Below are positions 1,623 through 22,483 of a DNA stretch of 64,000 bases, in pieces. Each line of letters opens with the position of its first letter. The stretch's first letter is position 1. The notes under the pieces were generated by a model. The model had not been told where the DNA came from. It worked only from the letters and a program-made list of their open reading frames with translations, and did not search any database. The stretch spans positions 62,001-126,000 of the forward strand of contig NC_089460.1 of NCBI RefSeq assembly GCF_026210795.1, read 5' to 3'. A program made the position numbers and the translations under genes. This DNA is from Rhizophagus irregularis. Lineage: Eukaryota; Glomeromycota; Glomeromycetes; Glomerales; Glomeraceae.

Positions 1623-1630
1623 CTCAGGGG

Positions 1631-2932: not shown

Positions 2933-3199
2933 AAGAGTATTCGCTGGAGAATATCCATCTTCTTTGCATCTCGCCTTCGTAACAGCCACGTTCGCAGTAT
3001 TATTGGACCCAAAGTCTAAAACAATACAAACAAATGAAAATACAATGAAAAATAAAATAGAATATTATATGGTAAATTTCATAATTTTGAACTTAAATTG
3101 TAATAATGGTATCTATTTATTAACTAATTTATTTAAATTATTAACGGTCAGAAATTATTAGATGATGATAGAACAGACGGCAAAAACTAAAAAATATAT

Positions 3200-3864
3200 T
3201 GATTCCGTAAGTAAAAAAATTCTTCTTTTTCGATAATATTATATCCTTTTTCCTTTAAAGGTTCTGACTAATTAATATAATTCTTTTCTATATTACTAAA
3301 TTTAACAAGTGTATGTTTTTCAATTTTGAATGGGGGAGGTGCTGATGGAAATATGTTTTTTTTAAAGTAAAGGGCTTAGCAAGAATTTTATATATAAAAA
3401 TTTGCAAATTTTTTGTAACAAACCAAATAAAATTTTCAATTCAATAATAAATTTAAGGCAAATTTGACTTTTTACTTCATGTCCGATCTCTGGAAATAAT
3501 CGAAATATGATCGGCTTTTATCGGCCGATCATTTATCCAATTCTAGTAAAATTTTATTCAATTCGGCTGATCCGGGACCAAAGATTTTTAAAGAAAACTT
3601 CAATAAAATAAAAACAATAAAATAAAAACGTATTTTGTGGTGAAAAAACATATTTTTTATTAATTACGTGCAAAAAAAAGATCAAAGTAACAAATTTTTG
3701 TGGATCGGCTGATCTTAATGAGATTCACGGCCGTATGATAAATAATTTTATATGTAAATATGGCCATTTTTACTGAAGGAAATAAAAATTTGCGTATAAA
3801 TACGGTCATTTTTACCAAAGGCAATAGCAAGTAAATAATTCAAATCCTATACAAATACCTTAAA
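3200..3864. other. AT-rich intergenic stretch, no gene seen
   Basis: There are only short frames. The phrase GATCGGC and its complement occur several times (about 3505-3560 and 3700-3735), possibly the worn ends of an inverted-repeat element. No pair is good enough to define boundaries. Confidence 0.4.
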
Positions 3865-4008
3865 ATGATACCCCAGGAATGCCCATATTGCTCAAGAACA
3901 TTTTCCTCCAAATCTGGATATACTCAACATGTTAAACATTGTGTTCCTCCTGTAATTGTTAGTGATAGTGAATCGGATCTCGTAACTGATATTAATATGT
4001 TTATTTAA
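3865..4008 (+). pseudogene. C2H2 zinc-finger ORF (47 aa), truncated by a hairpin array
   Basis: ATG at 3865 opens MIPQECPYCSRTFSSKSGY and continues to TQHVKHC. This is a single finger of pattern C-x2-C-x12-H-x3-H, followed by an acidic Ser/Asp tail. The frame reaches its stop (4006-4008) within the first bases of the hairpin array, whose opening TTTATTTAAAGC supplies the terminal codons. Short N-terminal C2H2 fingers of this kind start several fungal transposase families (for example Plavaka/CACTA-like); that origin is inferred. The rest of the presumed gene is absent downstream. It could instead be a genuine micropeptide, but the stop supplied by the repeat argues for truncation. Confidence 0.45.
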
Positions 4009-4866
4009 AGCAATTGATTAAACAATGGTAAGAAAATTTCGAGCGAATTTTTCTTGCCATTGTTCAAAGTATACAATTGTTTATTTTTAAAGCAATTGAT
4101 TAAACAATGGCAAGAAAAGTTCGCTCGAAATTTTCTTGCCATTGTTCAAAGTATACAATTGTTTTTTTTTCAAAGTAATTGATTAAACAATGGCAAGAAA
4201 AATTCGCTCGAACATTTCTTGCCATTGTTTAACTCAAGTCTATTGTTTTTTTTTAAAGCAATTGATTAAACAATGGCAAGAAAATTTCGCTCTAACTTTT
4301 CTTGCCATTGTTCAAAGTATACCATTGTTTTTTTTTTCAAAGTAATTGATTAAACAATGGCAAGAAAAATTCGCTCGAACATTTCTTGCCATTGTTTAAC
4401 TCAAGTCTATTATTGTTTTTTTTTAAAGCAATTGATTAAACAATGGCAAGAAAAATTCGCGCGAACTTTTCTTGCTATTGTTCGAAGCATACCATTGTTT
4501 TTTTTTAAAGCAATCGATTAAACAATGACAAGAAAAATTCGCGCGAACTTTTCTTGCTATTGTTCAAAGTATACCATTGTTTTTTTTAAAGCAATTGATT
4601 AAACAATGGTAAGAAAAATTCGCTTGAACTTTTCTTCTTGCTATTGTTCAAAGTATATCATTGTTTTTTTTTAAAGCAATTGATTAAACAATGGCAAGAA
4701 AAGTTCGCGCGAACTTTTCTTCTTGCTATTGTTCAAAGTATATCATTGTTTTTTTTTAAAGCAATTGATTAAACAATGGCAAGAAAAGTTCGCGCGAACT
4801 TTTCTTGCCATTGTTCAAAGTATACCATTGTTTATTTTTAAAGCAATTGATTAAACAATGACAAAG
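4001..4866. repeat. Hairpin array 1: about 10.5 tandem copies of an ~82-bp palindromic unit
   Basis: Each unit has an AT-rich linker (AAAGCAATTGATTAAA), a left arm (ACAATGGCAAGAAAA), a core (TTCGCGCGAA or TTCGCTCGAA), a right arm (TTTTCTTGCCATTGT), then a spacer (TCAAAGTATACCATTG) and an oligo-T run. Left and right arms are near-perfect reverse complements, so each copy can form a stem of about 20 bp. Units start near 4011, 4095, 4179, 4260, 4346, 4430, 4512, 4593, 4678, 4763 and 4846; the last copy keeps only its left arm. Copies 3 and 5 are a variant in which the spacer reads AACTCAAGTCTATT. Compensating arm changes (GCCATTG versus GCTATTG) are mostly on one side only. Confidence 0.9.
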
Positions 4867-5345
4867 AAATATTTATTGAATAAATAAAACATAAATTTGT
4901 TAACAAGATATCCATTATCTCAATTAATTTAACGAAATTTGGCCAAAAACCAAAATTTTTACCATTATCAGACACGCAAATTTAATGATTACATATTTAT
5001 ATCTGTGTACCCGCCGTAACGTATACCTATATGTATAAAATCGATAACATTTAACCGTAGTACCGATCACGTGTATGTTTATCGCAACTGGTTCAATTAC
5101 GTCAAAAAAATTATTATTTTACGACAAAAAAAAATTTGAAATTCTCGTTTATTTATTATGAAACCAATATAAAGATTTATTGAACTCGAAAATATTAGCG
5201 ATTGAAACTTAATTTTCCTTAAATTTAGGCCTTTATAAAGTTAAAAGTAAATTGACATTCCCGATCATCAAAATAAATAAAAATTTACGAAAACTTTATT
5301 CTTATAAAGATGAAAAAATGTTATTTTATTATCAGCTTGCAGTTA
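4867..5345. other. Intergenic, downstream of the Tnp2-like gene
   Basis: AT-rich sequence between array 1 and the stop codon of the minus-strand transposase gene. No open frame of substance. If the transposon is complete its 3' terminus should lie here, but I could not pair a CACTA-type terminal repeat with one upstream of 8659. Confidence 0.35.
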
Positions 5346-8300
5346 TTACCAGTTTGCATATTTGTCTATTATATAATAATTTTTTTTATCATACACTTCA
5401 AAAAATCCAACAGTTCTATCAATACCAATTACTTCCACATATTGTAGAGGACCGAAGCAATCAAAAAATTTTAAATTTCCAATATTTTTCTCCAATTTTT
5501 TGATTTTTCGAATATATGCAAACATTCGTTCTTGATTTTGCATATTATGGAGCATGAAATATTCAACTTGTCCAAAAGTCTCCTCTTCTTGTTCATCAAT
5601 AGTTAAGTTAATCTATAATAAAATTTTCTGTTTAATATTTGAATGATATTTATAATAATTATAAAATCTAATTATCAATTTCTTACAGCGACACAATAAT
5701 CATTTCGACTACTATCATTTTCTTTTTTCCACCATTTAGAAGATACAATATTGCCATCTTTTGTACGAAGTTTCCCATACTTCATATAACTTTCTTCAAT
5801 GTCCTAAATAATAAATAATGATATTACATCTGTAAAAGTATTCAAAAATAAATAAATATACAATGCAAAGTAGTTATAATTAAAAATTACTCTAATATCC
5901 CTGGCGTTTTTTTGGAATATAGCTGCATAGCATTGCTTTAATTTTATAGCCTCATTTTTTGTTAGTTTACAATTAACACACGGAGAATAAAATTCATACT
6001 GATTATCATATACAATACTAGACTTTACCCTATGCGATGGCCATGCTTTTTCCTTTTCTTTGAAATTGGAAAAAACTTTTTCATCATACGTTGGTAAAAA
6101 TTGTAGATACTTAAACCTTTCTTGCAGCAACACATTATTAATTAAATTCACATATGGAAGTTTTCGAGAGCTAATAAGTGGAATTAACATTCCACAATAC
6201 CTTTCCATCGGAAATTGCCAAAATCCACGACAAGGACCAAGATCTTCAATACAATCTCCTATATGCAGAGAGTAATGAAAAGAAATTAAATACACCGGCA
6301 ATCTTTCTCCTTCTAACCCGTATGAACTATTATTATAAAAAGACATGTTAATTAATGTATAAAATATTATTATATAATTCCATAAAGATGATACCTTGCA
6401 TAATGATTATAAAATTGTATCAATAAATTTCGGATTTTATCTAGATCTTCAAAATCTATTCGAGGTTGAATACATAACTGAACAGCTTCAACAAAATTTG
6501 ACCATCCTAAGAAGTAACTATTATTTTAAATTATTTAAATAAGCTTTCCTATATTATCAATTTTTTAACAATTAACTCTTTTTATTTATTATTACCTTTG
6601 TGGCAGCCTTCCTTTTAATAATGGTAAAGAAAATAAAATAATCCAATTTGCCCATTCCACAGCTTTAAACCCAGCCGAATGTTTAATGATATTGCGTGGA
6701 GGACGTCCAATATCAGATGGCATATTAGATCTATTTTTTTCCATGATTTCACCAATTTCAATCCATGTTTTAGAACTTATTGTATAATTATTTGAATTCC
6801 GTTCATCATTTTTTGGATAGAATTTTCCTATCCAATGTCGAAACATGTGAGGTGCAATGTTTTCGAAAAAAAGGTGCATTATATCCACTGGAAATGAACG
6901 CGGAAATTTTATAGAAGATAACTCAAATAATATACTCTTTCCTTTAATTCCTAATTTTTTTTTATTAAACAAGAATTTTAAAAATTCAGAAAATATATTA
7001 ATCAATTTTACTATGAGTTTATTTAAAATATTGAACTAACCGCAGTTACGTATATAAGTTTCTCTACGATCTCCTTTCAGATGTTCTATTTGATTTATGC
7101 TAGTCAGCATCTCATCATGTGTTCGAATTGGTAATCGTATAGGATCAATATTTTGTTGTAATGGATAATATACATGTCTATTCATTTCATTTAAAGTTCC
7201 TCGAAGATTACAGAATCTGCAACCTGAATATGAATTATGTCCCGTTAAATATAAAATTTTTGAAAGAGCGGGAAGATCTCCAGTCCAAGCTAATATGTGA
7301 GCACGTAAAGTAAAATATTCTTTTTTGTTTCCATCATAGCATAATATTCCATCTGTAAATACAAAAATATGATTAATAAATATTATATTAATTATTATTT
7401 TTCATATTTTTTAATATACCTTGTAACAATTTCATCTCTTGAATTAATGGATAGAGAAATGAATTAAAATCTTGAGGTTGTTTTGGCCCTGGGATTATTA
7501 ATGTTACCATTAAATTTTCTTTTTTTACCCTTAATTCTTGAGGCAAATTATTATTTATAAAAAGAAATACCCAACAGTCATCAGTTTTTTGTCGAAATAT
7601 TTGATAACCGTCACAAGATGCAGTAAATGCAACATCTCTAGGATCGGGAAAATATGCATCATTTAATAACTCTTTATAAATCAGCCCATCAAAAATATCA
7701 CCTATGTCCCTATGAACAAGATCTCCTATATTATTAGTATAGTTATGCCTATATAATAATTCTTTGGATCTTTTAGAGTTTTTAAATTGAAGCTTTAAAC
7801 GCTCAATTATAGAGACAAAAGGTAAATTTTTTCTTGATTTACCATTACTATAATATCGGTCCTCTTTACAAAATTTACACTTTCTTTCATTTTCTAAAAC
7901 TCCTACGAACGCACAACATGAATTGACACACATATCGTATATTTTTGGTTCAATTCCTACTATCGAACCAAGTATTTTTTTTATTTTATTTAAGCTCATT
8001 TTATTTCTATTGAAAGCTTTATATATATTATTAAATGCAGCTTCAGAAAAATTAAAATTTGATTTCACATATAAAAGCCTTAATCCTTCAAGCAATTCAT
8101 CAGAAATAATTGTATTATCTAAAAAATTTATCATTATTGTTAATAAATAGTTAATGTATTTAAATACTATTAATAATTTATTTTGGAATTCACCTTCTTC
8201 ATTATCAGCATTAGAATTTATGTTATCAGATTCTGATTCATTTTGAGAATCAGAAATTGAATCATCATTTTCATAATAATAATAATGATCATTTTCATAA

Positions 8301-8659
8301 TTATTAGTTTTCTCATTTTCTTCATTTTGGAAACTAAAATCATCATTAGTTTCTTCTGGAATTTCTTCATTATCACACATTTCCATATATGATCGTTCAT
8401 TTTCTTCTTCATTATCACTTGTCACCATAAATGATCGTTCATTTTCTTCATACAAGTCTTCTTCACGTAAGTTTTCTTCGTATAAATTTTCCTCTTCAGA
8501 ATGATAAAAATTTTCTTCAGGATGAAGTCTTTGGTATTCATCTTCTAGAGCTTGTGCCTCTTTTTCTTCTAATAAATGTCGAGCTACTGTTGTCCTATGA
8601 AGTACTCTTCCCCTACCATTTGATAAATTTAAACAATGTTTACATTCACACTTAGGCAT
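5346..8659 (-). CDS. Tnp2-type (CACTA/EnSpm) transposase, multi-exon
   Basis: The protein starts MPKCECKHCLNLSNGRGR, a Cys-rich N-terminus typical of fungal Tnp2-like transposases. A long Glu/Asn/Ser-rich region follows (8130-8540). Next comes the conserved core: a Cys cluster (YDMCVNSCCAF, CKFCKEDRY), the RDIGDIFDG and FTASCDGYQIF stretches, then LRAHILAWTGDLPA, GHNSYSGCRFC and FPRSFPVDIMHLFFENI. Exons 8659-7420, 7352-7041 and 6950-6596 join cleanly by GT-AG introns of 67 and 90 bp. Further exons at about 6513-6401, 6316-5890, 5800-5685 and 5615-5346 carry ERLPVYLISFHYSLHIGD and an EVIGIDRTVGFFEV C-terminus. The junction near 6596/6513 does not keep frame in my reading, so it may hold a frameshift. 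The enzyme would cut and paste its own element in the nucleus. Terminal repeats were not identified. Confidence 0.75.
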
Positions 8660-9379
8660 AATTTCAATTAGGAAAAAAATATATTTATTTAATGGTTTTT
8701 TAATTTAATAAAGTTTATTATATGTATTTGGAGAGTTTTATCACATATAATTTGTTAGTACTTTCTTTGAATTCGCTTTCTTTATATATATATTCGAGAG
8801 TTTGGTATATTATCCCGACACTCTAAATCCTGACATTTCATAAGCCCGACACTTAATAAGCTCGAAATACAAATATCGAAATGAAAAATCTTGAAATTTA
8901 TTATAACTGATTTCATAATGTACGGGACTTAGCAAATTTTAAAGAACTCGAAAATATTCGGTAATATTCGGTAAAGCTCAAAATAAACTCTAAAATTAAC
9001 GTATAACATAATTACATTATATAGTATATACAATTATACTTTATACTACGCCATCATATATATGTGTATATATGTCCTGTGTTATATATCTTTTCTACAA
9101 TAACCCGACTAGCCGAGTAACCCGAGTACCCGACAATCCCGACAATAAATGATGGGCTGAGATCCGTCCTTTTAAAGTGTTTGTGCCCCTATGATCGCTA
9201 CATATAGGCAGGTCATGTTTCACATTGTTTCACGTATCTGTTTACACGGGGGACGTACGTGATTTTAATTTATCACCTGATGTTAATAAACCCTAGTCAT
9301 CATAAAAATCCACGTATTTTTCCTACTTTTTTCTCTTTAACATTTATACGTTTACGATACGTTCGATACTTTTACGTGA
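8660..9379. other. Intergenic, rich in CCCGACA motifs
   Basis: The phrases TCCCGACA, GCCCGACA and AACCCGA recur at 8810-8860 and 9100-9150 on an otherwise AT-rich background. They could be subterminal repeats of the Tnp2 element, but I did not find a matching inverted terminal pair. No gene is seen. Confidence 0.35.
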
Positions 9380-11095
9380 CTATGAGCAATAATAATGATC
9401 TCCAAGAACAATTGGACCTTATCAAGAAACAAAATGAAGCTTTATTGGAAAAAAATAAAGTATGTGTATGAAAAATAAGGATTTTTATGCAACTCTTCAT
9501 AAATTTTATTAAAAAAAAATTTATTTTCAGTTCTCTGGATAGTACTTTTTCGTTTCCCACAACAATAACAAGTTATAATAGACCTTCTACAGCGTTAAGT
9601 TTCCAAAGGCCTTCCTCCACAGCGAGTACGCGAAGACCCTCCACGTCATTCACAGCGAGTACGCGAAGACCCTCCACGTCGTCATCCATAACTTCTGTTG
9701 CTGTAAGCCCTTCCACATCATTCACAGCGAGTACGCGAAGACCCTCCCCGTCGTCGTCCATAACTTCTGTTGTTGTAAGCCCTTATTATTATTACTGTAT
9801 TTAATTATTTAAGTTATTTATTTATTTTTTAAATATATCATTAAAAGACACATAGTTTTATACAAAGGCCAAAAAAGAAGTATATTTCAAAAGCTGATAT
9901 GTTAAACGCGTTAAATATTTCGAATGAAGTGTATACGACATGTGTGGTGCGTATATACATAAATAATTTGGTTATACAAAACAAGACTTTAATAATCAAT
10001 AAAACTAGGCTGCAATGCGCATATGCGCTGATTATCAGCTTGAATACAATTACGCCTATAAAGACATTCCTAAGAACATTTTATTCAAAATAATCGAAAA
10101 GGTAATTTTTATTTGTTTTATAGATTTTTTTTTATAAATATAATGAAATAATAACCTTTTCTTAGTTTAAATTAAGAACGAAAGACTTACATATACCGTT
10201 CGGCTTTAATGATTGGTTTGCGTATGAATTGTTAAAAAAACACGTCCAACATGTCCGTGAGTATATTTGTTTTTTCTTTTTTTTTAAAAAAAAAAGAAAA
10301 GATCAAAAATCTAATTTATATTTAATTTATATTAATGAAAGGCGATCATAAAGCCAAGAATAGAAACGGATATTTTAAGAAAAGGAATCAAGACGAGGAA
10401 GAAGAAGAAGTTAGAAATGAGGAACAAGAAGAAGAGGAAGAAGTTAGAAATGAGGAACAAGAAGTAGAGGAAGAGGAAGAAGTTAGAAATGAGGAACAAG
10501 AAGAAGAGGAAGAGGAAGAAGTTAGAAATGAGGAACAAGAAGAAGAGGAAGAGGAAGAAGTTAGAAATGAGGAACAAGAAGAAGAGGAAGAGGAAGTTAG
10601 GAATGAGGAACAAGAAGAGGAGATTAGAACTGTAATAATCAGAATTGAAGGAAACGAAGAAATCCGAAATAGAAATGAAGAAAATGATGTTGAAGACGAA
10701 GATCAAGGTATAATTATATTGTAACAAATCAACCATAGGAAATGACTTAATTTAATGTTTGTGATTAATGTTTGTGATTTTTATTATTTAGCAAAAAAAC
10801 GAACCGGAGAACCTATGAAAAGTAAAATTTTTTTTTATAAAATGATTATATTTTAATTTAAATAAAAATAATTAAATGTATTTTTTTTTTCTATTAATAG
10901 AGGATTCAAACAACAAACGATTGAAAGTTACAAGTAAAATTACAAGTAAAAAAATTTTTTATAATTAATTAATTTAAATAAAATAACTTTTAATATTTTT
11001 TCTTATTTATTACATTAGACGGACGAAGCCTGCGTAGAAGACCTATGGCCGTTAATAAAGAAGAGGTCAATCGTATAAGCCAGTGGGGTTGTTAG
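9380..11095 (+). CDS. Orphan multi-exon gene with Ser/Thr/Pro-Arg repeats and a Glu-rich repeat region
   Basis: I do not recognise the family. Exons at 9848-9946, 10009-10101, 10166-10256, 10342-10707, 10792-10821, 10901-10933 and 11019-11095 join by GT-AG introns and sum to exactly 263 codons in one frame, which makes the model strong. In order they encode a basic helical segment (RPKKKYISKADMLNALNIS), ADYQLEYNYAYKDIP, FKLRTKDLHIPFGFNDWF, then a Glu-rich tandem repeat (EEVRNEEQEEEE), then a basic tail ending RISQWGC. Upstream, 9380-9457 encodes a coiled-coil start (MSNNNDLQEQLDLIKKQ). The stretch at about 9531-9774 encodes Ser/Thr-rich repeats (ASTRRPSTS). That first junction does not preserve frame, so the 5' end is uncertain or frameshifted. 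The conserved middle may be a DNA- or protein-binding domain; that is a guess. Confidence 0.6.
9613..9776. repeat. In-frame minisatellite, GCGAGTACGCGAAGACCC core
   Basis: Three copies of ACAGCGAGTACGCGAAGACC (from about 9619, 9652 and 9725) are interspersed with two copies of CCATAACTTCTGTTG. All spacings are multiples of three, so the repeat encodes a low-complexity Ser/Thr/Arg/Pro segment. It stands out by its higher GC content. Confidence 0.7.
10384..10625. repeat. Glu-codon repeat GAAGAAGTTAGAAATGAG
   Basis: Six to seven copies of a unit of about 36-45 bp encode EEVRNEEQ plus a variable run of Glu. Length changes are whole codons, so the frame stays open. The opposite strand is consequently an open Phe/Leu-rich frame, which is a shadow. 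Confidence 0.8.
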
Positions 11096-11186
11096 TACCA
11101 GTAATAAGAACAATAAAAAGAAAACCAAGAAAAAATAATCATTTACTTTTTTTTATAAACTAAAATAAAAAATGTTTTAAATTTGT

Positions 11187-11240
11187 AATGTTCGCAAATA
11201 ATCACCAGCCTCTATAAAAAATTTCATACGTTATAGCGTA
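11187..11240. repeat. Single orphan copy of the 54-bp minisatellite unit
   Basis: TGTTCGCAAATAATCACCAG followed by CATACGTTATA has the same words in the same order as the array at 22.5-23.3 kb. It sits alone about 11 kb away, so the unit is dispersed and amplified at only one of the two places. Confidence 0.55.
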
Positions 11241-11533
11241 TTTTCTATAGATACGGTATTTTTTTATATTATTTTTATTATAAATTTTACAACTTTATGA
11301 ACTTTATATTAAATACTACATTTTAAACCCATATGTTTATAATGTATACTTCGACACTAAGTATGCACTACCCAAAAATTTACTGATGTAAAGAAAAATT
11401 CACAAGAATTTTCATTAATACTGTTTAATTTTTAAGTTCAAAGTCCGATTGATAATACTGTTATACTGTTTAATTTTTAAAGCTCAATTATAAATCAAAT
11501 TTAATAAATTAGTATTAAGATTTTAATTTAAAG

Positions 11534-11584
11534 ATTAAGCAGTATCAAGGAATATTCTCCGAATTTTTCTTGATACTGCTTAAT
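11534..11584. repeat. Family-B hairpin (stem ATTAAGCAGTATCAAG)
   Basis: ATTAAGCAGTATCAAG (11534-11549) is followed 19 bases later by its exact reverse complement CTTGATACTGCTTAAT (11569-11584). The core (GAATATTCTCCGAATTTTT) resembles the core of the family-A arrays, but the outer stem is unrelated. It lies just upstream of array 2. Confidence 0.8.
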
Positions 11585-11623
11585 TCTAATTAGCTAATTT
11601 AGTACTAATGTTTTAATTTAAAA

Positions 11624-12590
11624 ATTAAGCAGTATCAAGAAAAATTCGCTCGAACTTTTCTTGCCATTGTTCGAAGTATACCATTGTTTTTTTTTAAAGC
11701 AATTGATTAAACAATGGCAAGAAAAATTCGCTCGAACTTTCTTGCTATTGTTCAAAGTATATCATTGTTTTTTTTTAAAAGCAATTGATTAAATAATGGC
11801 AAGAAAAATTCGCGCGAACTTTTCTTGCTATTGTTCAAAGTATATCATTGTTTATTTAAAGCAATTGATTAAACAATGGTAAGAAAAATTCGTCGAACTT
11901 TTCTTGCTATTGTTCAAAGTATACCATTGTTTTTTTTCAAAGTAATTGATTAAACAATGGCAAGAAAAATTAGTTCGAATATTTCTTGCCATTGTTTAAC
12001 TCAAGTCTATTATTGTTTTTTTTAAAGCAATTAATTAAACAATGGAAAGAAAAATTCGCTCGAACTTTTCTTGCTATTGTTCAAAGTATATCATTGTTTT
12101 TTTTTAAAAGCAATTGATTAAATAATGGCAAGAAAAATTTGCGCGAACTTTTCTTGCTATTGTTCAAAGTATATCATTGTTTATTTAAAGCAATTGATTA
12201 AACAATGGTAAGAAAAATTCGCTCGAACTTTTCTTGCTATTGTTCAAAGTATACCATTGTTTTTTTTCAAAGTAATTGATTAAACAATGGCAAGAAAAAT
12301 TCGCTCGAACATTTCTTGCCATTGTTTAACTCAAGTCTATTATTGTTTTTTTTAAAGCAATTGATTAAACAATGGCAAGAAAAATTCGCTCGAACTTTTC
12401 TTGCCATTTTTCAAAGTAGCATTTTTTTTTTAAAGCAATTGATTAAACAATGGCAAGAAAAGTTCGCGGCTCGAACTTTTCTTGCTATTGTTCGAAGTAT
12501 AGCATTGTTTTTTTTAAAGCAATTGATTAAACAATGGCAAGAAAAATTCGCTCGAATTTTTCTTGCCATTGTTCAAAGTATATTTTTTGC
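11624..12590. repeat. Hairpin array 2: about 12 copies of the ~82-bp unit, with a 329-bp higher-order repeat
   Basis: This is the same unit as array 1. The first hairpin (11624-11671) is chimeric: its left arm is family B (ATTAAGCAGTATCAAG) and its right arm is family A (CTTGCCATTGTT). A block of four units is duplicated with a period of about 329 bp: the diagnostic AAATAATGGC variant occurs at 11791 and again at 12120, and the GTTTAACTCAAGTC variant follows in both. The last copy ends near 12588 as a complete A/A hairpin. Confidence 0.9.
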
Positions 12591-13189
12591 AAAAACCGAA
12601 GCCCTTTAAAACGAAATATAGCCAAAGCGCAATTAATCCGCAGTACTGTGATACCACAATTAATTGCATTATTGCGGAATTGCGAATATCTGATATATGA
12701 ACTTTAAACTCCGTAATATCTGCAATCAATACCCGAACAAATGTTATGCCAATTACTGTAAGCCAAAGATACCGCGGTTCTATATGATCACGTGAAATTT
12801 ATTTTTGAAATTTATTTATACATACAGTTTACAGTAGGATCGGGGAATTAGAAACCGTGCCCAGAAAACGGGGCTGCTTAAAAACCGCGCCCAGAAAACG
12901 GGGCCGGCTTCTTTGCGCCATTAATTTAGGGGCTGCTTAAAAACCGCGCCCAGAAAACGGGGCGCTTCTTTTGTGCCATTAATTTGGGGCTGCTTAAAAA
13001 CCGCCCCAGAAACGGAGCTGCTTAAAAGGAAACCTATTACATCATGATTTAAACAAATTATGTATATATATATTCTTTGTGCCATTAAAAATTAATAACA
13101 ACTTTCGAACAATACATACGCTCAATACAATACATTCTTTTGCTATTTAAACTGTCTTCCTGGAAATAATTAAATAATTTTCTTTTTTC
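12591..13189. repeat. GC-richer tandem repeat, GGGGCTGCTTAAAAACCG unit, in an otherwise gene-free stretch
   Basis: Between about 12838 and 13022 the words GGGCTGCTTAAAAACCGC, CCAGAAAACGGGG and CTTCTTTGCGCCATTAAT recur three times with a period near 65 bp. The repeats shorten progressively. Nothing codes here; the remainder of the stretch is AT-rich. Confidence 0.65.
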
Positions 13190-13535
13190 ATAATTTTTCA
13201 TAAATTTTCCTCTATCATAAAATTTTCCTCCATCATAATCATAAATTTTCCTCTATCATAATCATAAATTTTCCTCTATCATAATCATAAATTTTCCTCT
13301 ATCATAATCATAAATTTCCCTCGTTCATAAATTTTCCTCCATCATAATCATAAATTTTCCTCTATCATAATCATAAATTTTCCTCTATCATAAATATAAA
13401 TTTTCCTCTATCATAAATTTTCCCCTTTCATAAATTTTCCCCTTCATAAATTTTCCTCTTTCATAAATAAATTTTCCTTTTTCATAAATTTTTCTCTTTC
13501 ATAAATAAATTTTCCTCTTTCATAAATTTTCTTCC
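13190..13535. repeat. Pyrimidine-rich short tandem repeat, CATAAATTTTCCTCTAT
   Basis: About 15 copies of an irregular 15-23 bp unit (CATAAATTTTCCTCTATCAT) directly precede the ATG at 13554. One strand is nearly purine-free over 300 bp. It may serve as a pyrimidine-tract promoter or leader of the next gene; that is inference from position only. Confidence 0.75.
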
Positions 13536-13553
13536 GAACATTCTTACTTACAA

Positions 13554-14898
13554 ATGATGAATGTTAATCAAGAAGTCGATCAAGAAGTAGCAACAAGTCA
13601 ACATCAAGAGGTGAATGTTCAAGAAGTAACATCAAGCCAAAATAGTATGTAGAATCATATATATAATTTTTATAATTATTAAATAAAATTTTTATTAAGA
13701 ATAAACGTTTATTTCTGTTTCAATTCTAGAATCGAACATTGTAAAATTTGTTGTAGATATAAATAAAAATATGGAAAGCCTTGGTATAAATTCTCTTAAT
13801 ATATCATCAAACCAAGAAGCAATTTTAGATAGTAAAGAATTCGGAATTTTTAAAATACTTTTCAATAAAGAAGAAAATACAATTTTACAAGCAGCAAATG
13901 TAGCCCCGGGATCTAGTTCAGTAAGTTCATCAACAGCAAGAACCACTGATTTAAGATCATTCTTAACCGCGCTGGCAATCGAAATGGCAAAAAATCTACA
14001 CAAACTCCTATTATATTTTGATAATCTACCAACTATTCCTCCTACAATGAATCCAAACAATATTGACGTTAAATTGTATATTAAAAAGTTGTTAGAAAAG
14101 TTAAGTACTTTAACAAAGGAGGAGTTTGAAGCTGAAATTGAGAATCAAAATAACAAGGATTTTTTAAAAGTTTATTATTCAGAGGAGGAAGAAGAGAAAG
14201 TAGTAATTGATTTTCAGAATGAACTAAATTTTCCTGAAATCATTTCAGAAACAAACCTCTTAAAGCTTGATTCAGATTTTGATATTATAAAAGAAAATAC
14301 TATAAAAACGTTAGTTAATCATTTAATAAAAGTTTATGACAAGATTCTTGAAGAGCATATCGAAACGGAAATAAGAAGAAGAAGAAAGTTTAGGGGATAT
14401 GTAAATTTTCTTATGATATATCAAAAAATAGAGGTTTATTGTAATTTATATAAGACTAGAGCTAGGGGAGAGACGATTAAAAATCAAACGAATAAAAAAA
14501 TAATTGAATATAGCAGTTCTAGCAAATTTAAAACTCAAGATATATCAATTTTTATAAAAACAGGAAAGAGAATTGAAAAGTTAATTAGTCTTTCAAATCG
14601 TGAATGGGGAATTATTGACGCTTTTCCAAATTTAGACATAAATTTTTTCAAATCTACAACAAGTAATGCCGCGTATGAAGTTTGGCTCAAACTCATTGAG
14701 ACTGGACTCATTATGACCAAAGAAGAGGGACAAACAATTTATAATTATAAAAAAATTGAAGAGAATTATTTAAGGGAATATAAGCTTCAGAGAATATATA
14801 AATCGATTCAAGCGAGCGATCATGATGATACTGGTTCTCCGAGATACTACTTCAACGAAGATGACGACGGTGATAATGATGAAATGATGATTGACTAG
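13554..14898 (+). CDS. Orphan protein, about 419 aa, two exons
   Basis: Exon 1 (13554-13644) encodes a Gln/Glu/Val-rich start (MMNVNQEVDQEVATSQ). Exon 2 (13730-14898) joins it in frame through an 85-bp GT-AG intron. The body is helical, acidic and lysine-rich. Notable segments are KNLHKLLLYFDNLP, a basic patch EIRRRRKFRGYVNF, TGKRIEKLISLSNREWGI and an Asp/Glu tail (DDDGDNDEMMID). No signal peptide, membrane segment or known motif is visible. The intact 390-codon second exon in such AT-rich sequence argues for a real gene. I do not recognise the family; a lineage-specific AMF protein or a transposon-associated accessory protein are both possible. Confidence 0.65.
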
Positions 14899-15691
14899 TG
14901 ATTTCATTTTTTTTCTTCTATTTTCGTTTTTTTTTGGTTTTTTGAATATCTCTATCTATTAGAGATCCTTTTTTTTTTATAATTCTAATAATTTCAACTG
15001 GGTTTTGTCGGGCGATTTTTTTTTTGGAAAAATCTATTGTGTTATAGTTAAGGTCAGTGTGCGTTGGCATTATAATTGCGTTTAGGGACAGTACGTTGAA
15101 TTATAATTACGTTAGGATTAGGGTCAAGATGTTTGGTTTATGGGATTATGTAATAAAATCATTGTATTTTAACAGTTAGATAATTTCTTTATTAATATAT
15201 AATAAAATACATTGCTATAGTTGAAATTTTATAGTGACAAATAGTTATTCATCACCATCTGATTATGGTGATAAATGGTAATTTATATAAATGACGTGAT
15301 ATAGAATTTGTTTATTTTATTTTATTTTATTTTAAGGATTTTAAGGTAAGCCAGGAGAATACATTGATAATTTTAAGCTAATAAATTATAAAAACACACA
15401 ATGTAGAATCGTCGCCCAATAAATCGAGCCCTGACTAGAACTATATAAAAACTATTCTAAAACCCAACTGAAGTAGAATAGGTAATAAAAGTAATAAAAC
15501 GCACAAATAAACAATCGAACAACAAGTGCAGACCCGTATTTTCCTTTCAACCCATAAGATAAGGTTGCCACCTGTGAATACTGTAAAAGGTGGAGTGGTT
15601 AACGCTATTTTAAGTTGTTAAATTTGTAAAAACAAAAAGAGAACAAATCACATAATAGTGAAAAAAAAGAAAAACCTAAGTTATTATATAA
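14899..15691. other. Intergenic, no gene seen
   Basis: AT-rich, with homopolymer T runs just after the stop of the upstream gene and a (TTTTA)n tract near 15315. TCGGGCGAT at about 15009 and ATCGTCGCCC at about 15408 form a weak inverted pair about 400 bp apart. This could be the edge of a degraded element, but I could not define one. Confidence 0.35.
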
Positions 15692-17194
15692 CTATAATAC
15701 TATATATATAAAAATACGAAAAATTTCAATACTATAAAGTGGTGAAAAAAGAGGACCAATATATCTATAAATATAAAAAAGAGGGAGAGCATCTAATAAA
15801 ATGAAATTATTAGTTCGAACAAAAATTAGTAACCAGGCTGAATCTTCAGTAAAATGATGAAACCTTTTCCTCATATGGAGATTGTAATGCAAGTCCGAAT
15901 TAAAATTCCTAGTGGCTGACCGTTTAAGTTGACGAGGCGCCTGATGAGTAACATATTCCGGTTCATATAGTTTATTATGCCGTACTGTGAGAGCAAGATG
16001 GAGACCGCTTTCGTCCATTGTTTCTTCTAAAATTTGTAACTGTTTGATATTGAAATCAGGGTCGGTAGCGCGACCTTTTTGTTTCTTTTTTCCTTTTGTC
16101 GGAGGTAAGGAAGATGATGCAATAGGAGAATGTTGTCGTCTCAAGTATGTGTGATAATCATAACAAACGTTTTGATAATGAGTAAGAGCGATAGTCAAAT
16201 TATCGCGATAGAGAGCGATTTCAGTAGTAGTCTTCCCATTGAACTTTCAAATCATCGATGCGTGTCGCAAGTTGAGTTTCGCGATCTCGTGTAGCTTTAT
16301 AGCTCTTATTGCAGCAATCCACTGTTTACTACCCACTGTTTACTACCCACTTGTCTTGTAAGGGTCGAAGGGTTTTCTTTTCATTATGAGATAACGAAGA
16401 ATGTAGCTTGCCATCCTTATACATGGGCTCTTTCGGGAACAAACGGATAGGAACGGGATTAGAAACCGTATTAGCTTTATCCGATTTTTTTTAGATTTCT
16501 TGGTCGTGGTGGCTTTAATGGCCTCAATTTCAATAATCTACTGTTTGCTACCAACTTTCAACGGTTGAAGATTTTTCTTATCTTTCTTAGATAATTTAGA
16601 ATATGTAAGACCACCCTTGTAGATAGGTTCATCAGGGATAAATGGGATAAGATGGAGGGGAAATTGACCATCTTTCGAAGTAGTATTAGATGAAGAAGAA
16701 CCAGAGGGATCAGCAAAAGCAACTGAAGTATTGACGACAGGTGTTGAATTATTGTCGTCCGTTGGAGATTTAATAATGTTGTCCTCGATCGATGATGATG
16801 CCATTTTGTTATCTCATAAGACGGATCAAATATAGATCCATGGACATTTGAATCGAAGTATTTAGCAATATAGTAGTACTTCTCGTTGCACTTCGGGTAG
16901 TGTTGAGGATTCAAGGAACGGTAGCTGAAAAGTATAGTAACGCTGTAGTGGAACCTGAAATTTCTTCTTATATTTCAAATGCATAATCGGCTTTCTGAAA
17001 TTTTGTGATTGTTGAAATAGGAAACCTTTTCTTTTTGACGCTAAAAGTTTATCTTCAAGTGAGGCGTCAGCTGTAAGATCAGACTTATGAAAAACTTGCC
17101 TACATTTGCGTTCAAATCGTGCTTGTTGTCTTTTCCGGACATTTGGATTGTCGCTGTTTTGAAGATTAAAGTTGAAAAAACGACCTTTTTTCAT
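15692..17194 (-). pseudogene. Decayed minus-strand gene with an internal duplicated segment
   Basis: Reading from 17194 downwards, an Arg/Lys/Phe-rich start (MKKGRFFNFNLQNS, RKRQQARFERKCRQVF) ends after 110 codons. A second start at 16804 opens a Ser/Thr-rich stretch leading to DEPIYKGGLTYSKLSKKDKK and PLKVGSKQ, then TAG. About 150 bp on, a paralogous block reads PKEPMYKDGKLHSSLSHNEK and TLRPLQ, so this module was duplicated and has diverged. The second copy has TGG where the first has the TAG, suggesting a Trp-to-stop change. A final frame (16198-15692) encodes HYQNVCYDYHTYLRRQ and a basic linker. At least three frame breaks separate the pieces. The function is unknown; it may be a retroelement gag-like or lineage-specific gene. 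Confidence 0.45.
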
Positions 17195-17921
17195 GATATT
17201 GTCGATACTGTTAGCGCAATATTGCGATTGAAAAGAAATAAAATCCTTTTAACTCCATAATGTCCGTATTCGTTTCATTTTCCACATCTGCTATTTCTTC
17301 TCTAGTTTCTCCGATTGATTGTACCCTTATTTCACTTTATTTTATATTGAATACCTTCGAGTAATTTTTGAATTTATGAATTGTACAATCGTACAATCGT
17401 TATTTTCGTTCGTTTCTCTCTTTTCTATCTTCTCTTTTGCATAATGCAAGGTCGCCTCGTCCTTGAAACATAAAAACATTCTATCTATTGTAATGATTTA
17501 ATAAAACTATATATTTTTGTGAAAATTTTACTATTACGTTTTGAATCAGCTCTAACGTTCTTTATACTCGGCATTTTTGATCACATGTTTTATTGTTGGT
17601 GTAACCCGATCAGCAAATCAATCAATCAATTCACTCCACTCCGCCACAATGCATATAGGCGCTGTGAAACAAAAATAGCCATTTGCTTACATGCATCACC
17701 CCCAACTTCTGGCGTTGCTATGCTCCAACATATCATTTAAAAGAGCAGTAAAAGGCATATTCTTATGCATATTCTTATGCTTCGACCCAACATATCATTA
17801 TGCTCGACCCAACATATCATTTAAAAGAGCAGTAAAAGGAGCTTCGGTGACTTTTAATTGTTTACTGTATTCATATTGTATATCTTATATATCAATACGT
17901 TTTTCTCTAATAGTTTTTATA
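17195..17921. other. Intergenic with a 30-bp direct repeat
   Basis: ACATATCATTTAAAAGAGCA followed by GTAAAAGG occurs at about 17728 and again at about 17812, an exact direct duplication 84 bp apart. The rest is AT-rich. No gene is seen before the ATG at 17922. Confidence 0.4.
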
Positions 17922-19997
17922 ATGTCATGTTTAGTAACAGCTAAGGTTGAAAAACTTTTACTAGAAGGACCTCTTGATGCTATATGTTCTGCTACCGTTA
18001 TATACCAGACAATGAACAGAAATGACTTACTTCCATATGAAGAAGTTATAAAAATAGTAGAAAGTGCGGTTAAATCATCGTTAAAAAGAATAAGAGATTT
18101 CCAACGAAAAGAAAGTGTGATGGAGGTTTTAACGGAGGTTAGTAATAATAGGCGCATTAATATTCGTTATTGTGCAAACTGATGAATTTACGGCAGTGTA
18201 ATGTGTTATAGTAGTTTTGGTTGTCGCTGCTGAAGGTTGGGGGATGCCGGCCCAGGGAAGAGCGATGTTGTTAGGAACAAATCCTTTAGATGTCGAGGGT
18301 TTCTGCTCTCCTCTAGCTGTGCGTGACTATCTTAGCTATTACATGATTGTGCACGTGCAGCAAAATTTAATATTCATAAAATTAATGTGGTCACTAACTT
18401 ATATTATATCGATATTTCGCTAATTAACTCGTCGTAATTTAAAAGAAAAGTCGATATAAAAGCATAATTATGGATTAAATAACAAGATCGAGCGCTAATG
18501 GGATACGGTACAGTATTTCTTAATATATATATATATATGGATTGGAAAATCTTATCACGATCTAATCAATCATAATTTCAGAATAAGGAATCAACGCCAG
18601 ATACTACGGAGGAAGAAATAAAGAAAAATATTGAGATGTTAAATGAAAAGCTTAAAGTATGTGTTTTTCTATTTTTTATAATCATACGTACCAATACTTA
18701 TAAAGGTATTCTCTATATAGCATCCTTTGGGTGATGATGATGGGCCTCTCTATAGCGCCCTTAAGAAAACAGTTGAGAATATCGTTCTTTCAGATCTTAC
18801 GTGGCGAGATCCTGTAGCAAACATGGTTCTAAGCGATAACTCGTATATAGTAACAGGATTACATCGCAAATTAAAACCAATCTTTATGGTGAGAAGCAAT
18901 TTAGTGTTATTGGATGAATTGCATTCATACTCATTCTTTTTCATTATAACAACAGGAACCATGCAATAAAATGAAATGTACTCACCCCCCAAATTAGTTG
19001 TAAAAAAATGTGAGGATTTCTTAGAAAATTTTGAAGTATTGTCTACTCATAAAATCGTGGAAAATGCCAAACACGATAATAAATGGAAAGAAGATGATTC
19101 TGATCTATTAAAAATAACAGGTCGAATTTTAGATGTACTGTAAGTTTTTCAATAATAACTTCATTATATAAATAGTAATTGTATGATAACATTTTCCGAT
19201 ATTTATTTTACCTAGTGGCGAAATATGGAGTAGTCCAATTTATGCGACAAGTACTTCCCGTAATAAACAGAGCGAAGGAACTTATATTACCGATGTTATA
19301 GTCCCTTTACTTCGTGCAAGCCTGGCGAACCTACCAAATGGTTATATCTGTACAAGCATGTAAGTAGTCACGTGATTACTATTTTAACCATGGCTCAGAT
19401 ACTTAGTGTGTATTTTTATCAAATTTCAGTGCAGAACGTCAGAGTATTGCAAGCAAGATTCGAAAAAATAAAGGGATCGATGGAGAACGAATCGGTAAAA
19501 AACCCGATATTATGGGAATAATGAAGCAAGACACAAATGATATCGAGTTGATTTATGTTGAAAGCTCTCGCATTACATGTAGCGAAAAAAAAAAAGATGA
19601 TTATGATGTAAAATTGTGGAGAGAAATGATAGACGGGACAAGTGCTATAAACGCATTATGTAGACCGGCCGGTCATGAATTTGGAGTTGTTGGTATTCAA
19701 ATTGCTGGTTTAGATATGCGATTAAATGTTTTGGTAAAGGATCTAGGTGGTATACCGCGATATTTCCATCTTGATCATGCTGAAATCCCAATATCGCCAC
19801 ATTTAACAAACACTAAATCCCTTATACGTGTTTTATTGAACCTAAGGAACGTTATGATTGTAAATAAAAGTTTAATAACGCAGGCGTTATTAGAAAACCC
19901 ACCTCGTAATACTAGTCAAAGTACTACTGTCAGTACACCAGATAATTCCATGTATTATAATAGTAATTCCGTGTATTATAATAGTAATAATAACTAG
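17922..19997 (+). pseudogene. Six-exon orphan gene with a PD-(D/E)XK-like core, one frameshift in a C run
   Basis: Exons 17922-18137, 18582-18656, 18721-18888, 18956-19139, 19216-19359 and 19430-19997 have GT-AG introns. They sum to 1,355 nt, one base short of a whole number of codons. The missing base maps to a run of six C at 18985-18990: the frame entering exon 4 stops at once, while the +1 frame (KLVVKKCEDFLENFEVL) continues cleanly to the end. Exon 6 carries KKPDIMGIM followed 11 residues later by ELIYVESSR. That spacing (P-D, then E-x-S) resembles the core of PD-(D/E)XK nuclease-fold domains found in Crinkler-like and other expanded fungal families, but Ser replaces the usual Lys. Then come FGVVGIQIAGLDMRLNV and IPRYFHLDHAEIP. 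It is either a recent pseudogene or a sequencing error in a homopolymer. The assignment to a fold is inference. Confidence 0.5.
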
Positions 19998-20099
19998 TAT
20001 TAAACCTTAATTAATAAATGAAAATCACATTACATACAATGCTGGTATATATGAAATGAGTAAAAAAGTCTCAATAAACTTCCTTTTAGGTTTTTTTTT

Positions 20100-20535
20100 C
20101 GTTTTATTTCTTTTAGAATAAAATACACTAAGCCATCGTGTCCTGATGTCGAATGTTTGATTGACGTCGAATCAACGCTCGTCCGATGTCATCTCGATTC
20201 GCATAATGTTTGTGTGACGTCAAATAGACACCTGTTCGATGTCATTTCGATGTTTACTTAATGTACACAAGGCGGGAAAAATAAACATTTTTCGACATTA
20301 ACTTAATATTGAAACAATGTAAGTGCGATGTTATTATTCGATGTCTATTCGTTTACTAATCGTAGTTATTCGATGTCGAATCGATATCACTACGATTAGT
20401 AAACGAATAGACATCGAATCAACGTATTTAAGTTCAACTTAAAGATGTCGAATCGATTTTCATCACGACATCATGGTGACGTCTGATCAATATAGAATCG
20501 ACATTGATTTTATATCGACCGTAACTCTAACTGAA
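20100..20535. repeat. GACATCGA/TCGATGTC-rich tract with a 30-bp perfect inverted repeat
   Basis: The octamer TCGATGTC or its complement recurs many times. TTCGATGTCTATTCGTTTAC and ten further bases (20337-20366) are perfectly inverted at 20389-20418 around a 22-base loop. The loop contains a smaller palindrome around TCGATGTCGAATCGAT. No coding potential. Confidence 0.7.
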
Positions 20536-20573
20536 ATTTCTGTAAAGTAATTTACTAAGGTTTTAATTTAAAG

Positions 20574-21414
20574 ATTAAGCGGTATCAAGAAAAATTCGCG
20601 CGAACTTTTCTTGCCATTGTTCAAAGTATATCATTGTTTTTTTTAAAGCAATTGATTAAACAATGGCAAGAAAAGTTCGCACGAACTTTTCTTGCCATTG
20701 TTCAAAGTAGCATTTTTTTTTTTAAAGCAATTGATTAAACAATGGCAAGAAAAATTCGCGCGAACTTTTCTTGCTATTGTTCGAAGCATACCATTGTTTT
20801 TTTTTAAAGCAATTGATTAAACAATGGCAAGAAAAATTCGCTCGAACTTTTCTTGCTATTGTTCGAAGCATACCATTGTTTTTTTTTAAAGCAATCGATT
20901 AAACAATAACAAGAAAAATTCGCGCGAACTTTTCTTGCTATTGTTCAAAGTATATCATTGTTTTTTTAAAGCAATTGATTAAACAATGGCAAGAAAAATT
21001 CGCTCGAACTTTTCTTGCTATTGTTCGAAGCATACCATTGTTTTTTTTAAAGCAATTGATTAAACAATAGCAAGTAAAATTCGCGCGAACTTTTCTTGCT
21101 ATTATTCGAAGTATATCATTGTTTATTTAAAGCAATCGATTAAACAATGGCAAGAAAAATTCGCTCGAACTTTTCTTCTTGCTATTATTCAAAGTATACC
21201 ATTGTTTTTTTTTTTAAAGCAATTGATTAAACAATGGCAAGAAAAATTCGCGCGAACTTTTCTTGGATTGTTCAAAGTATACCATTGTTTTTTTCAAAGC
21301 AATCGATTAAACAATGACGATAAGAAAAGTTCGCGAATTTTCTTGATACTGCTTAAAAATTAAAAAAATTAAGCAGTACCAAGGAAAATTCGCGAACTTT
21401 TCTTGTCATTGTTT
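20574..21414. repeat. Hairpin array 3: about 10 copies, flanked on both sides by A/B chimeric hairpins
   Basis: This is the same ~82-bp unit as arrays 1 and 2. The first hairpin (20574-20621) has a B-type left arm (ATTAAGCGGTATCAAG) and an A-type right arm. Near the end, 21309-21355 has an A-type left arm and a B-type right arm (CTTGATACTGCTTA). The last hairpin (21368-21414) is again B-left/A-right. Leaders before arrays 2 and 3 share the phrase TTTTAATTTAAA followed by (A/G)ATTAAGC. Confidence 0.9.
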
Positions 21415-22483
21415 AATTTATCGATCATGCTTTCAACTATACAGTTAAAAAGTTAAACTGTTAAAGTTGAGCGGTATCTTAACAATCGTAATTATCGGAC
21501 TTAGAACTTTTTAATCATATTTCTGATCAAATTATGCACATTTGTGGTTATTGTATAGATTATTGTATAGGACTATAGGCTATTTACCGTCTTTTTCCGG
21601 GTTAATTAAATCTATAATGTAAGAACAAAATTATTGGCTGATCAGTGTTGATTACCACGTGAAAATTAGCCAATAGATGATTGCAGATCATTTGTTTTTG
21701 TAACGTGAATAATATAAGTTTGAAAAATACAAACTCTTTCTTTTATTTTGTTTTTACTTTTTTACTCAAATTATTATTATCTCAGATATTACATTTATTT
21801 GTTTCTTTTTATCATTGCTTTTTTACTCAAGTTATTATTATTTCAGATATTACATTTATTTGTTTTATTTTTATTATTTAAGAAGAATTGTGAAGTTATA
21901 ATAGTTTTTTATATTGGTTAACTTTCAGTTATTACTAATTATTTATTTTGACTTCTTGAACTTTTCTAATATAGACATGTTTATATACTTAATAAAGTAG
22001 GTACAGTCATTTATTTTCTTTTCTTTTTTTTGTCTTTATTTATCCTTTTCTTTTATTACTACTAGTTTTGTCTTCTTTTAATCATTACTAATTTTATTTT
22101 ACTAATTTTATCTTTTTATTACTACTAATTGTATCTCCTTTTTATTGCTACTAATTTTATCGCTACTAATCTAATCTTTAATAATTTCATTCTTTTGTTA
22201 CTACTAATTCATCTTTAATTACTACTAACTACATCTTTTTATTACTACTAATTTCATCTTTTATTAATTTTTTATTACTACTAATTTTATTTTTTTATCT
22301 TTTTTATCACTATTAAAATTGTACCTTCTAACTTTTCTATATCTGATTATAGTATTTTTAATTTAATAATAAAATTTAATAATTATAAGGACAAATTTTC
22401 ATGTTAAATATATAAATATTATATATAAAAATACCGTAGTAATAATACTTGCAAATATGATAAAATATGCGTATATTATGCTG
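21415..22483. other. AT-rich intergenic stretch with TTATTACTACTAATTT repeats
   Basis: From about 22050 to 22310 the phrase TTATTACTACTAATTT recurs about ten times with variable gaps (an imperfect short tandem repeat). Two copies of TCAGATATTACATTTATTTG lie at about 21782 and 21843. No gene is visible. Confidence 0.55.

What the first reader, a model, noticed from the sequence alone, without database searches (positions are those of the whole stretch)
4001..21414. Three dispersed arrays of an ~82-bp perfect-hairpin unit within 17 kb
Seen directly: arrays at 4.0-4.87, 11.62-12.59 and 20.57-21.41 kb together contain over 30 copies of one unit. The unit is built from two ~20-base complementary arms (ACAATGGCAAGAAAA / TTTTCTTGCCATTGT) around a TTCGCGCGAA-type core, with an AT linker and oligo-T. 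There is no open reading frame, no transposon terminus and no target duplication around any array. Most satellites do not preserve long perfect stems in nearly every copy, so either the palindrome is used (replication, structure, double-stranded RNA) or the arrays spread recently. I do not know a named family with this structure.
Basis: partly seen in the sequence, partly recalled or inferred. Interest (0 to 1): 0.8.

Follow-up and report, generated by a model that had tools for sequence, protein, structure and literature searches.

The report
Palindrome arrays inside a fungal transposon
The three hairpin-repeat arrays are real, but they are built-in parts of a roughly 25-kb jumping gene of a root-symbiotic fungus; related jumping genes, among them one without genes, carry arrays of the same 26-base palindrome, which looks more like a docking site for a protein than a free-living satellite DNA.

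Summary
The arrays are confirmed at the stated coordinates (32 hairpins in the window copy), but they are not independently dispersed. The trio recurs in 8 copies of one DNA transposon (24.4-25.7 kb in five of them) with CCCTATAAAAAATATG termini and 3-bp target duplications; empty sites for the window copy exist. The genome's assembly statistics match Rhizophagus irregularis DAOM197198. The transposon has a Tnp2 (PF02992) transposase gene and a second gene without a Pfam match. A non-coding 5.4-kb relative has two arrays; of 27 related elements picked by their left end, 23 show arrays and 3 more show 1-2 core sites. A sister giant element has five arrays. Stems are rarely perfect (3 of 32). 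Across three families the inner palindrome AAGAAAAATTC-N4-GAATTTTTCTT agrees at 20-21 of 22 consensus positions; outer arms (10-13 of 22) and linkers (28-30 of 68) drift. CpGs concentrate at its centre. Best reading: cis-acting clusters of a palindromic protein-binding site of this Tnp2 clan, reshuffled by unequal exchange and strand switching. The binder and its role are inferred, not shown. Neutral minisatellite drift is the main rival; a hairpin role is not excluded.

The parts
1..23480 (+). CACTA/Plavaka-like (Tnp2) DNA transposon, 25,725 bp in all; its left end lies outside the window (C32:59756)
   Evidence: Alignment with the C21 copy, TIRs, TAG/TAG duplication; empty sites at C32:175629-175737 and C26:1317008-1317116
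4000..4873 (+). Hairpin array 1, 10 hairpins, ~82-bp unit
11534..12583 (+). Hairpin array 2: one type-1 hairpin (11534-11586), a chimeric hairpin (11625-11674), then type-2 units; its left flank is homologous to the array of the 5.4-kb element
20568..21416 (+). Hairpin array 3, type-2 units bounded by chimeric hairpins at both edges (20575-20624; ~21300-21416)
4769..4818 (+). Example unit with a fully paired stem; with its linker (4769-4850) RNA MFE -32.6 kcal/mol, z -8.2
5804..8659 (-). Tnp2-type transposase gene (several exons, splicing not resolved; PF02992 in 7388-8659, E 3.3e-10, and in 7036-7401, E 9.4e-6, the latter below the curated cut-off)
   Evidence: dN 0.074 and dS 0.434 over 244 codons against the sister family
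13771..14898 (+). Second element gene, 375 aa, no Pfam match reaching a cut-off; relatives lie near Tnp2 relatives at several places in the genome
   Evidence: dN 0.437 and dS 2.3 against the sister family
22487..23263 (.). Right subterminal tandem repeats (~54 bp and related periods)
   Evidence: TACTGTTCGCA 3 times in the left 600 bp, 6 in the right 1200 bp, 0 in the middle 22,591 bp of the C4 copy
23456..23480 (+). Right terminal inverted repeat AACAGTATCCATATTTTTTATAGGG
401..1622 (.). Nested 1.2-kb insertion, absent from the other three copies aligned (C21, C4, C1:1527855), ends TAGTGTTTCGATC / GATCGAAACACTA, 8-bp duplication CTCAGGGG

Best explanation
The arrays are internal, cis-acting parts of a clan of Tnp2 (CACTA/Plavaka-like) DNA transposons of Rhizophagus irregularis. 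Each unit carries an AT-rich inverted repeat, AAGAAAAATTC-N4-GAATTTTTCTT, mostly with CpG at its centre. I infer that a dimeric element-encoded DNA-binding protein (Tnp2 itself or the second gene product) docks on these clusters. Dense docking would either help assemble the ends for transposition or keep the element from being silenced by CG methylation, as TnpA does for En/Spm (recalled) and VANC does for VANDAL elements. Unequal exchange and strand switching at the palindrome multiply units, homogenise them and swap arms, so linkers and outer arms drift while the core is kept. Shown: the arrays belong to the transposon, recur in three families, keep the core and its spacing, and occur in a copy without genes. 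Inferred: protein binding, which protein, and what the binding does.
For: Element: TIRs plus 3-bp duplications in 16 of 17 copies examined (8 of 9 giant, 7 of 7 small-family-type, and the C7 sister; the giant C10 copy does not match); empty sites at 99% over 109 of 109 bases. Array trio in 8 giant copies. Arrays without genes: the 5.4-kb L017 copy has no ORF of 80 aa or more but two arrays. Of 27 related elements listed by left end at 83-84% identity (which scored 40 of 88 candidates), 18 have hits of the 92-bp unit within 12 kb inward (at least two each in the shown list); of the other 9, sampled at 1.1 kb, 5 have 5-6 core sites, 3 have 1-2, 1 has none. Core: consensuses agree at 20-21 of 22 core positions against 10-13 of 22 in outer arms and 28-30 of 68 in linkers; N4 spacing in 283 of 318, 137 of 141 and 33 of 37 sites. 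At Tnp2's silent divergence (pS 0.33), 21 or more of 22 matches has P about 0.002, 20 or more about 0.01. CpG at the centre: 305 of 1359 dinucleotides against 62 of 8456 elsewhere in the unit (giant), 50 of 684 against 6 of 4256 (small), 34 of 243 against 33 of 1512 (C7). R. irregularis TE loci carry mCG and small RNAs (PMC8647823, passages read).
Against: No binding, expression or methylation data. Core sites were chosen with at most 4 mismatches, which favours core conservation, although the TRF consensus units, not so chosen, show the same core. The outer stem, too, is largely paired in two of three families, so a structural role is not excluded. A more distant Tnp2-plus-second-gene locus on C9 has no core site and no such array in 22 kb. 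The second protein is only about 41% identical between the two giant families while the core hardly changes. In Tnp2, the first 47 residues are 55% identical and residues 48-172 of the first exon did not align to the sister element, so the part of Tnp2 that might bind DNA may not be conserved either. The small element keeps other repeats too (a 186-bp tandem), so keeping arrays is not proof of need; of the small-family elements only L017 was scanned for ORFs.
Confidence: 0.5

Rival explanations
1. Neutral or selfish minisatellite inside a transposon: palindromes prone to strand switching and unequal exchange expand and self-correct, and ride along without doing anything for the element.
For: Hairpin number in array 1 of four whole copies is 10, 11, 10, 9. 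Array edges are chimeric, type-1 left arm with type-2 right arm. Loop inversions occur: TTGC to GCAA in the small family and GCTC to GAGC in the giant family. Between type-1 and type-2 consensus three outer pairs change on both sides, and a fourth does in 37 of 112 distinct units, which template switching can do in one step.
Against: Core conservation and fixed spacing across families while linkers are at AT-rich background similarity; arrays in 23 and core sites in 26 of 27 related elements; common mismatches in the stems show that self-correction is not efficient.
Confidence: 0.28
2. The arrays work as RNA: transcribed hairpins give double-stranded RNA or small RNAs that regulate the element or trigger host silencing.
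For: Type-2 and type-1 units fold strongly as RNA (MFE -32.6, z -8.2; MFE -26.6, z -7.0). Outer stems are largely paired in two of three families. R. irregularis makes small RNAs from TE loci (PMC8647823, passages read).
Against: Core changes that became common are mostly not compensated: A.C at pair 19/30 in 70 of 112 distinct giant units, G.T at pair 16/35 in 28 of 33 distinct small-family units. In the C7 sister element the outer stem pairs at a mean of 4.3 of 11 positions; 1 of 27 distinct units has 10 or more.
Confidence: 0.1
3. The palindromes act as DNA secondary structure: cruciforms or a replication origin of an excised element.
For: Loop inversions and breakpoints at the palindrome centre show that strands switch or refold there. 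Single strands fold well as DNA.
Against: A cruciform needs pairing, not a given sequence, yet the sequence is conserved more than the longer stem. No replication gene was recognised among the frames of the element scanned against Pfam.
Confidence: 0.06
4. Free-standing satellite arrays dispersed on their own.
For: Some arrays lie where only one transposon end was listed (C3, C9, C28).
Against: The trio recurs inside full-length elements with TIRs and duplications.
Confidence: 0.02

Closest known systems
CACTA/EnSpm and Plavaka DNA transposons (CMCT clade, Tnp2 transposase)
   Same: Tnp2 domain PF02992, 3-bp target duplications, subterminal repeats, a second gene, non-coding relatives; Plavaka and CMC families are reported in R. 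irregularis (PMC11075540, passages read)
   Different: Termini are CCCTA..TAGGG, not CACTA (recalled), CAC..GTG, TGT..ACA or CATCA..TGATG (PMC12730594, passages read); large internal arrays of a conserved palindrome
VANDAL elements with VANC anti-silencing proteins (Arabidopsis)
   Different: VANDALs are Mutator-like (recalled); the VANC21 motif is a 9-base YAGTATTAY; here no binder is known and the core is conserved between families
Internal tandem arrays of Tetris/Galileo foldback elements and Helentron satellites
   Same: Transposons carrying satellite-like arrays; Galileo repeats hold extra transposase-binding sites (PMC4079207, passages read; PMC7492417, listing and start of abstract)
   Different: Tetris and Galileo arrays lie in their terminal inverted repeats; here the arrays are internal to a Tnp2 element with short TIRs and each unit holds a palindrome
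CACTA element Jozin with captured satellite DNA (Chenopodium)
   Same: Satellite array inside a CACTA element (PMC8978399, passages read)
   Different: That array is described as captured and close to the 3' end; here arrays are shared by several families and by a non-coding member

Membership tests
CACTA/EnSpm sensu stricto | CACTA (CAC..GTG) termini | tested here: not met
   Termini CCCTATAAAAAATATG..CATATTTTTTATAGGG
CACTA/EnSpm sensu stricto | 3-bp target site duplication | tested here: met
   16 of 17 copies examined; empty sites
Tnp2 (CMCT-clade) DNA transposon | Tnp2 transposase domain | tested here: met
   PF02992 E 3.3e-10, 40 bits, cut-off 28.6; E 9.4e-6 in the next exon, 25.4 bits, below cut-off
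Tnp2 (CMCT-clade) DNA transposon | DDE triad with C(2)C and H(3-4)H motifs | not tested
   Splicing of the gene was not resolved
Tnp2 (CMCT-clade) DNA transposon | Subterminal repeats near both ends | tested here: met
   TACTGTTCGCA 3 in left 600 bp, 6 in right 1200 bp, 0 in middle 22,591 bp of the C4 copy
Plavaka | TGT..ACA or CATCA..TGATG termini | tested here: not met
   Termini differ
Plavaka | Plavaka-lineage transposase in a tree | not tested
   No tree was made
VANC-type anti-silencing system | Element protein binds the array motif and removes methylation | not testable with these tools
   No binding or methylation data
Foldback element | Long TIRs made of tandem repeats | tested here: not met
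   The two ends of a giant copy share 16 perfect terminal bases, then differ
Independent satellite DNA | Arrays outside any mobile element | tested here: not met
   All three window arrays lie inside one element

The most novel reading that the evidence does not exclude
A fungal counterpart of the VANC/VANDAL anti-silencing system that arose on its own: Tnp2 giant transposons of an arbuscular mycorrhizal fungus carry dense arrays of a CpG-centred palindrome that an element-encoded protein reads in a methylation-sensitive way, so that the arrays protect these elements and their non-coding relatives from CG methylation.
Probability: 0.15. Interest if true: 0.75.

Novelty: new variant of a known kind. 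Interest (0 to 1): 0.47.

Why it matters
R. irregularis has a transposon-rich genome with methylated TE loci, and how its elements stay mobile is open. Here is a young giant transposon family (near-identical Tnp2 and second-gene frames) with a defined, conserved and dense candidate regulatory site that related elements, at least one of them without genes, also carry. If an element protein binds it, this gives a concrete handle on transposon control in a fungus that is hard to transform (recalled), and a case of palindromic minisatellites kept for their sequence more than for a long hairpin. It also warns that such arrays should not be annotated as free satellites or structural RNA on sight.

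Tried and rejected
Independent satellite: rejected, the arrays recur as a trio inside full-length elements.

Hairpin kept for strict pairing: weakened, not excluded. Mismatches are common in the stem and the outer stem is unpaired in most units of the C7 element (4.3 of 11 pairs on average), but it is largely paired in the giant (8.0 of 11) and small (9.2 of 11) families, and the core is fully paired in 18 of 151, 4 of 76 and 16 of 27 distinct units. No formal covariation test was run.

Second protein as the binder that co-evolves with the core: not supported. It is about 41% identical between the two giant families (dS above 2, saturated), while the aligned Tnp2 pieces are 75-87% identical (dS 0.24-0.61), apart from a 47-residue N-terminal piece at 55% and 125 residues that did not align. 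Either it evolved differently or its module was exchanged. On rate Tnp2 fits the core better, but its diverged N-terminus makes this weak.

Every Tnp2-plus-second-gene element has such arrays: not so for the one tested, none in 22 kb at C9; that element's ends were not found, so arrays beyond the stretch are possible.

Structure of the second protein: single-sequence AlphaFold2 gave mean pLDDT 36.7, unusable, no fold search made. Six of the 13 relatives fetched were scanned; no Pfam match reached its cut-off.

Core pattern in viral and prokaryote contig collections: 0 matches. Other fungal genomes are not held here. The RNA fold of L077:4598-4672 starts inside a unit and gave z -0.64; not used.

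Literature: in the listings I saw no paper on this palindrome or these arrays in AMF; this covers only the open-licence library and those terms. Passages were read of PMC12730594, PMC11075540, PMC5735166, PMC10234402, PMC8647823, PMC8978399, PMC4079207.

Mended on the second look: the 26 of 27 count now separates arrays from single sites; mismatches called fixed are now called common; the outer-stem pairing is now measured. For these reasons I lowered the main confidence from 0.55 to 0.5 and the novel case from 0.17 to 0.15, and raised the RNA and DNA-structure rivals slightly.
Full report
What is there. Tandem Repeats Finder places three arrays of an ~82-bp unit (or its multiples) at 4000-4873, 11636-12583 and 20586-21316; sequence reading extends the third to about 21410. 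The window copy has 32 hairpins (10, 12, 10). In a 50-column register, column i pairs with column 49-i. Over 20 stem positions, 3 of 32 window hairpins and 29 of 314 hairpins from 29 arrays are fully Watson-Crick; 233 of 314 have 1-3 irregular positions. Some of the 29 arrays were cut by the fetched stretch. The stems are good but rarely perfect.

They belong to a transposon. The unit has at least 607 matches in the genome, and the trio recurs on C21, C14, C7, C4 and three times on C1; the distances are alike except on C7, where array 3 lies about 31 kb from array 2. Aligning the window region with C21 shows homology from outside the window (C32:59756) to window 23480. The ends read CCCTATAAAAAATATG..CATATTTTTTATAGGG, with TAG/TAG flanks in the window copy and AAA/AAA on C21. 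A search with each end gives nine copies with both ends: five of 24.4-25.7 kb and four of 30.3, 46.7, 48.5 and 71.8 kb. Three-base duplications are seen in 8 of 9 of these (not C10), in 7 of 7 small-family-type elements and in the C7 sister. Joined flanks of the window copy match uninterrupted DNA at C32:175629-175737 and C26:1317008-1317116 at 99%. The assembly matches R. irregularis DAOM197198 by its 32 units and by one contig equal to the published N50 (passages read); the totals differ by about 24.5 kb.

Genes. A Tnp2-type transposase lies between arrays 1 and 2 (PF02992). A 375-aa second gene without a Pfam match reaching its cut-off lies after array 2. Both have relatives across the genome, at several places near each other. 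Their frames are 98.8-100% identical where they align among the four copies compared, so the family spread recently; some other copies have stops or gaps in them. Against a sister giant element on C7, aligned Tnp2 pieces have dN 0.07-0.14 and dS 0.24-0.61, except a 47-codon N-terminal piece (dN 0.32, dS 0.18); residues 48-172 of the first exon did not align. The second gene has dN 0.44 with dS above 2.

Relatives. Elements with ends 83-84% identical to the giant's are often about 5.4 kb long. The C17 copy (L017) has no ORF of 80 aa or more, yet two arrays of a ~92-bp unit with the same hairpin layout and other outer arms. I call these units type 1, the giant's type 2. The left flank of the giant's array 2 is homologous to the array of the small element and still holds one type-1 hairpin. 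Array edges at 11625, 20575 and ~21300-21416 are chimeras of the two types. Of the 27 elements listed by left end at 83-84% (40 of 88 candidates scored), 18 have hits of the 92-bp unit within 12 kb inward in the shown part. I sampled 1.1 kb of each of the other 9: 5 have 5-6 core sites, 3 have 1-2, 1 has none. The sister giant element C7:926895-949325 has five arrays, some inverted, with a third type of outer arm. A distant Tnp2 locus on C9 has none in 22 kb.

What is conserved. Aligned on the centre, the three family consensuses agree at 20, 21 and 21 of 22 core positions, 13, 10 and 13 of 22 outer-arm positions, and 30, 28 and 29 of 68 linker positions. The half-sites stand exactly 4 bases apart in 283 of 318, 137 of 141 and 33 of 37 sites. 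These sites were chosen with at most 4 core mismatches, which favours the core; the TRF consensus units, not so chosen, show the same core. The core is fully paired in 18 of 151, 4 of 76 and 16 of 27 distinct units, and the 11 outer pairs form at means of 8.0, 9.2 and 4.3 (giant, small, C7). Common core changes are mostly not compensated: A.C in 70 of 112 distinct giant hairpins (24 are Watson-Crick at that pair) and G.T in 28 of 33 small ones. So the sequence of the inner palindrome is the best-kept feature; a longer hairpin is kept in two of three families. At the silent divergence of Tnp2 (pS 0.33), 21 or more of 22 matches has P about 0.002, taking positions as independent. CpGs are concentrated at the centre in all three families. 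Exact core sites number 527 and 514 on the two strands, against 0 and 0 for the reversed pattern.

How it changes. Loops appear inverted in place (TTGC/GCAA and GCTC/GAGC), hairpin numbers differ between copies, and arms are swapped at array edges. Three outer pairs differ on both sides between type 1 and type 2, a fourth in 37 of 112 distinct giant hairpins. These are expected of strand switching and unequal exchange at palindromes (general knowledge), which can change both arms at once.

Most likely working. A conserved inverted repeat with fixed spacing, amplified in non-coding parts of an element and present in related elements, at least one without genes, is best read as a docking site for a dimeric element protein. 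TnpA on En/Spm subterminal motifs (recalled) and VANC on VANDAL tandem motifs (PMC5735166, passages read) are working parallels. CpG at the centre and the mCG found on R. irregularis transposons (PMC8647823, passages read) make methylation-sensitive binding a testable idea. Which protein binds is open: most of Tnp2 changes slowly like the core, but its N-terminus does not, and the second protein does not. None of this has been tested by binding. Drift of a palindromic minisatellite remains the main rival.

Class. It is a Tnp2 transposon of the CACTA/Plavaka kind, but the termini differ from CACTA and from the two described Plavaka groups, so I do not file it as either. Internal satellite arrays in transposons are known. 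What I did not see described in the searches made is the palindromic core shared by coding and non-coding families, and its CpG centre.

Noticed in passing
window 401-1622: A 1.2-kb insertion in this transposon copy, absent from the C21, C4 and C1:1527855 copies, with ends TAGTGTTTCGATC / GATCGAAACACTA and an 8-bp duplication CTCAGGGG (hAT-like by duplication length, recalled).
   Followed up: partly
window 43738-43945: Another tandem palindrome: four ~52-bp units, arms like ATAAAAAAGTGA / TCACTTTTTTTAT around a centre with CGCGATACCGCA, outside this transposon.
   Followed up: no
window 23481-24000 and 60 bases before C32:59756: The transposon sits in a repeated sequence with uninterrupted copies elsewhere; a weak hAT RNase-H match (E 0.026, below cut-off) lies just after its right end, so the target may be an older hAT element.
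   Followed up: partly
window 13771-14898 and relatives L079-L091: Second gene family found near Tnp2 genes, no Pfam match; about 41% identity between two giant families whose aligned Tnp2 pieces are mostly 75-87% identical, suggesting module exchange or a much older split.
   Followed up: partly
C7:85617-132310, C1:2062320-2110788, C10:2319585-2391387: Giant copies enlarged to 46.7, 48.5 and 71.8 kb by further DNA; the C10 copy lacks a matching 3-bp duplication.
   Followed up: no
L017 994-1867: The 5.4-kb non-coding element also carries a 186-bp tandem repeat (4.7 copies).
   Followed up: no
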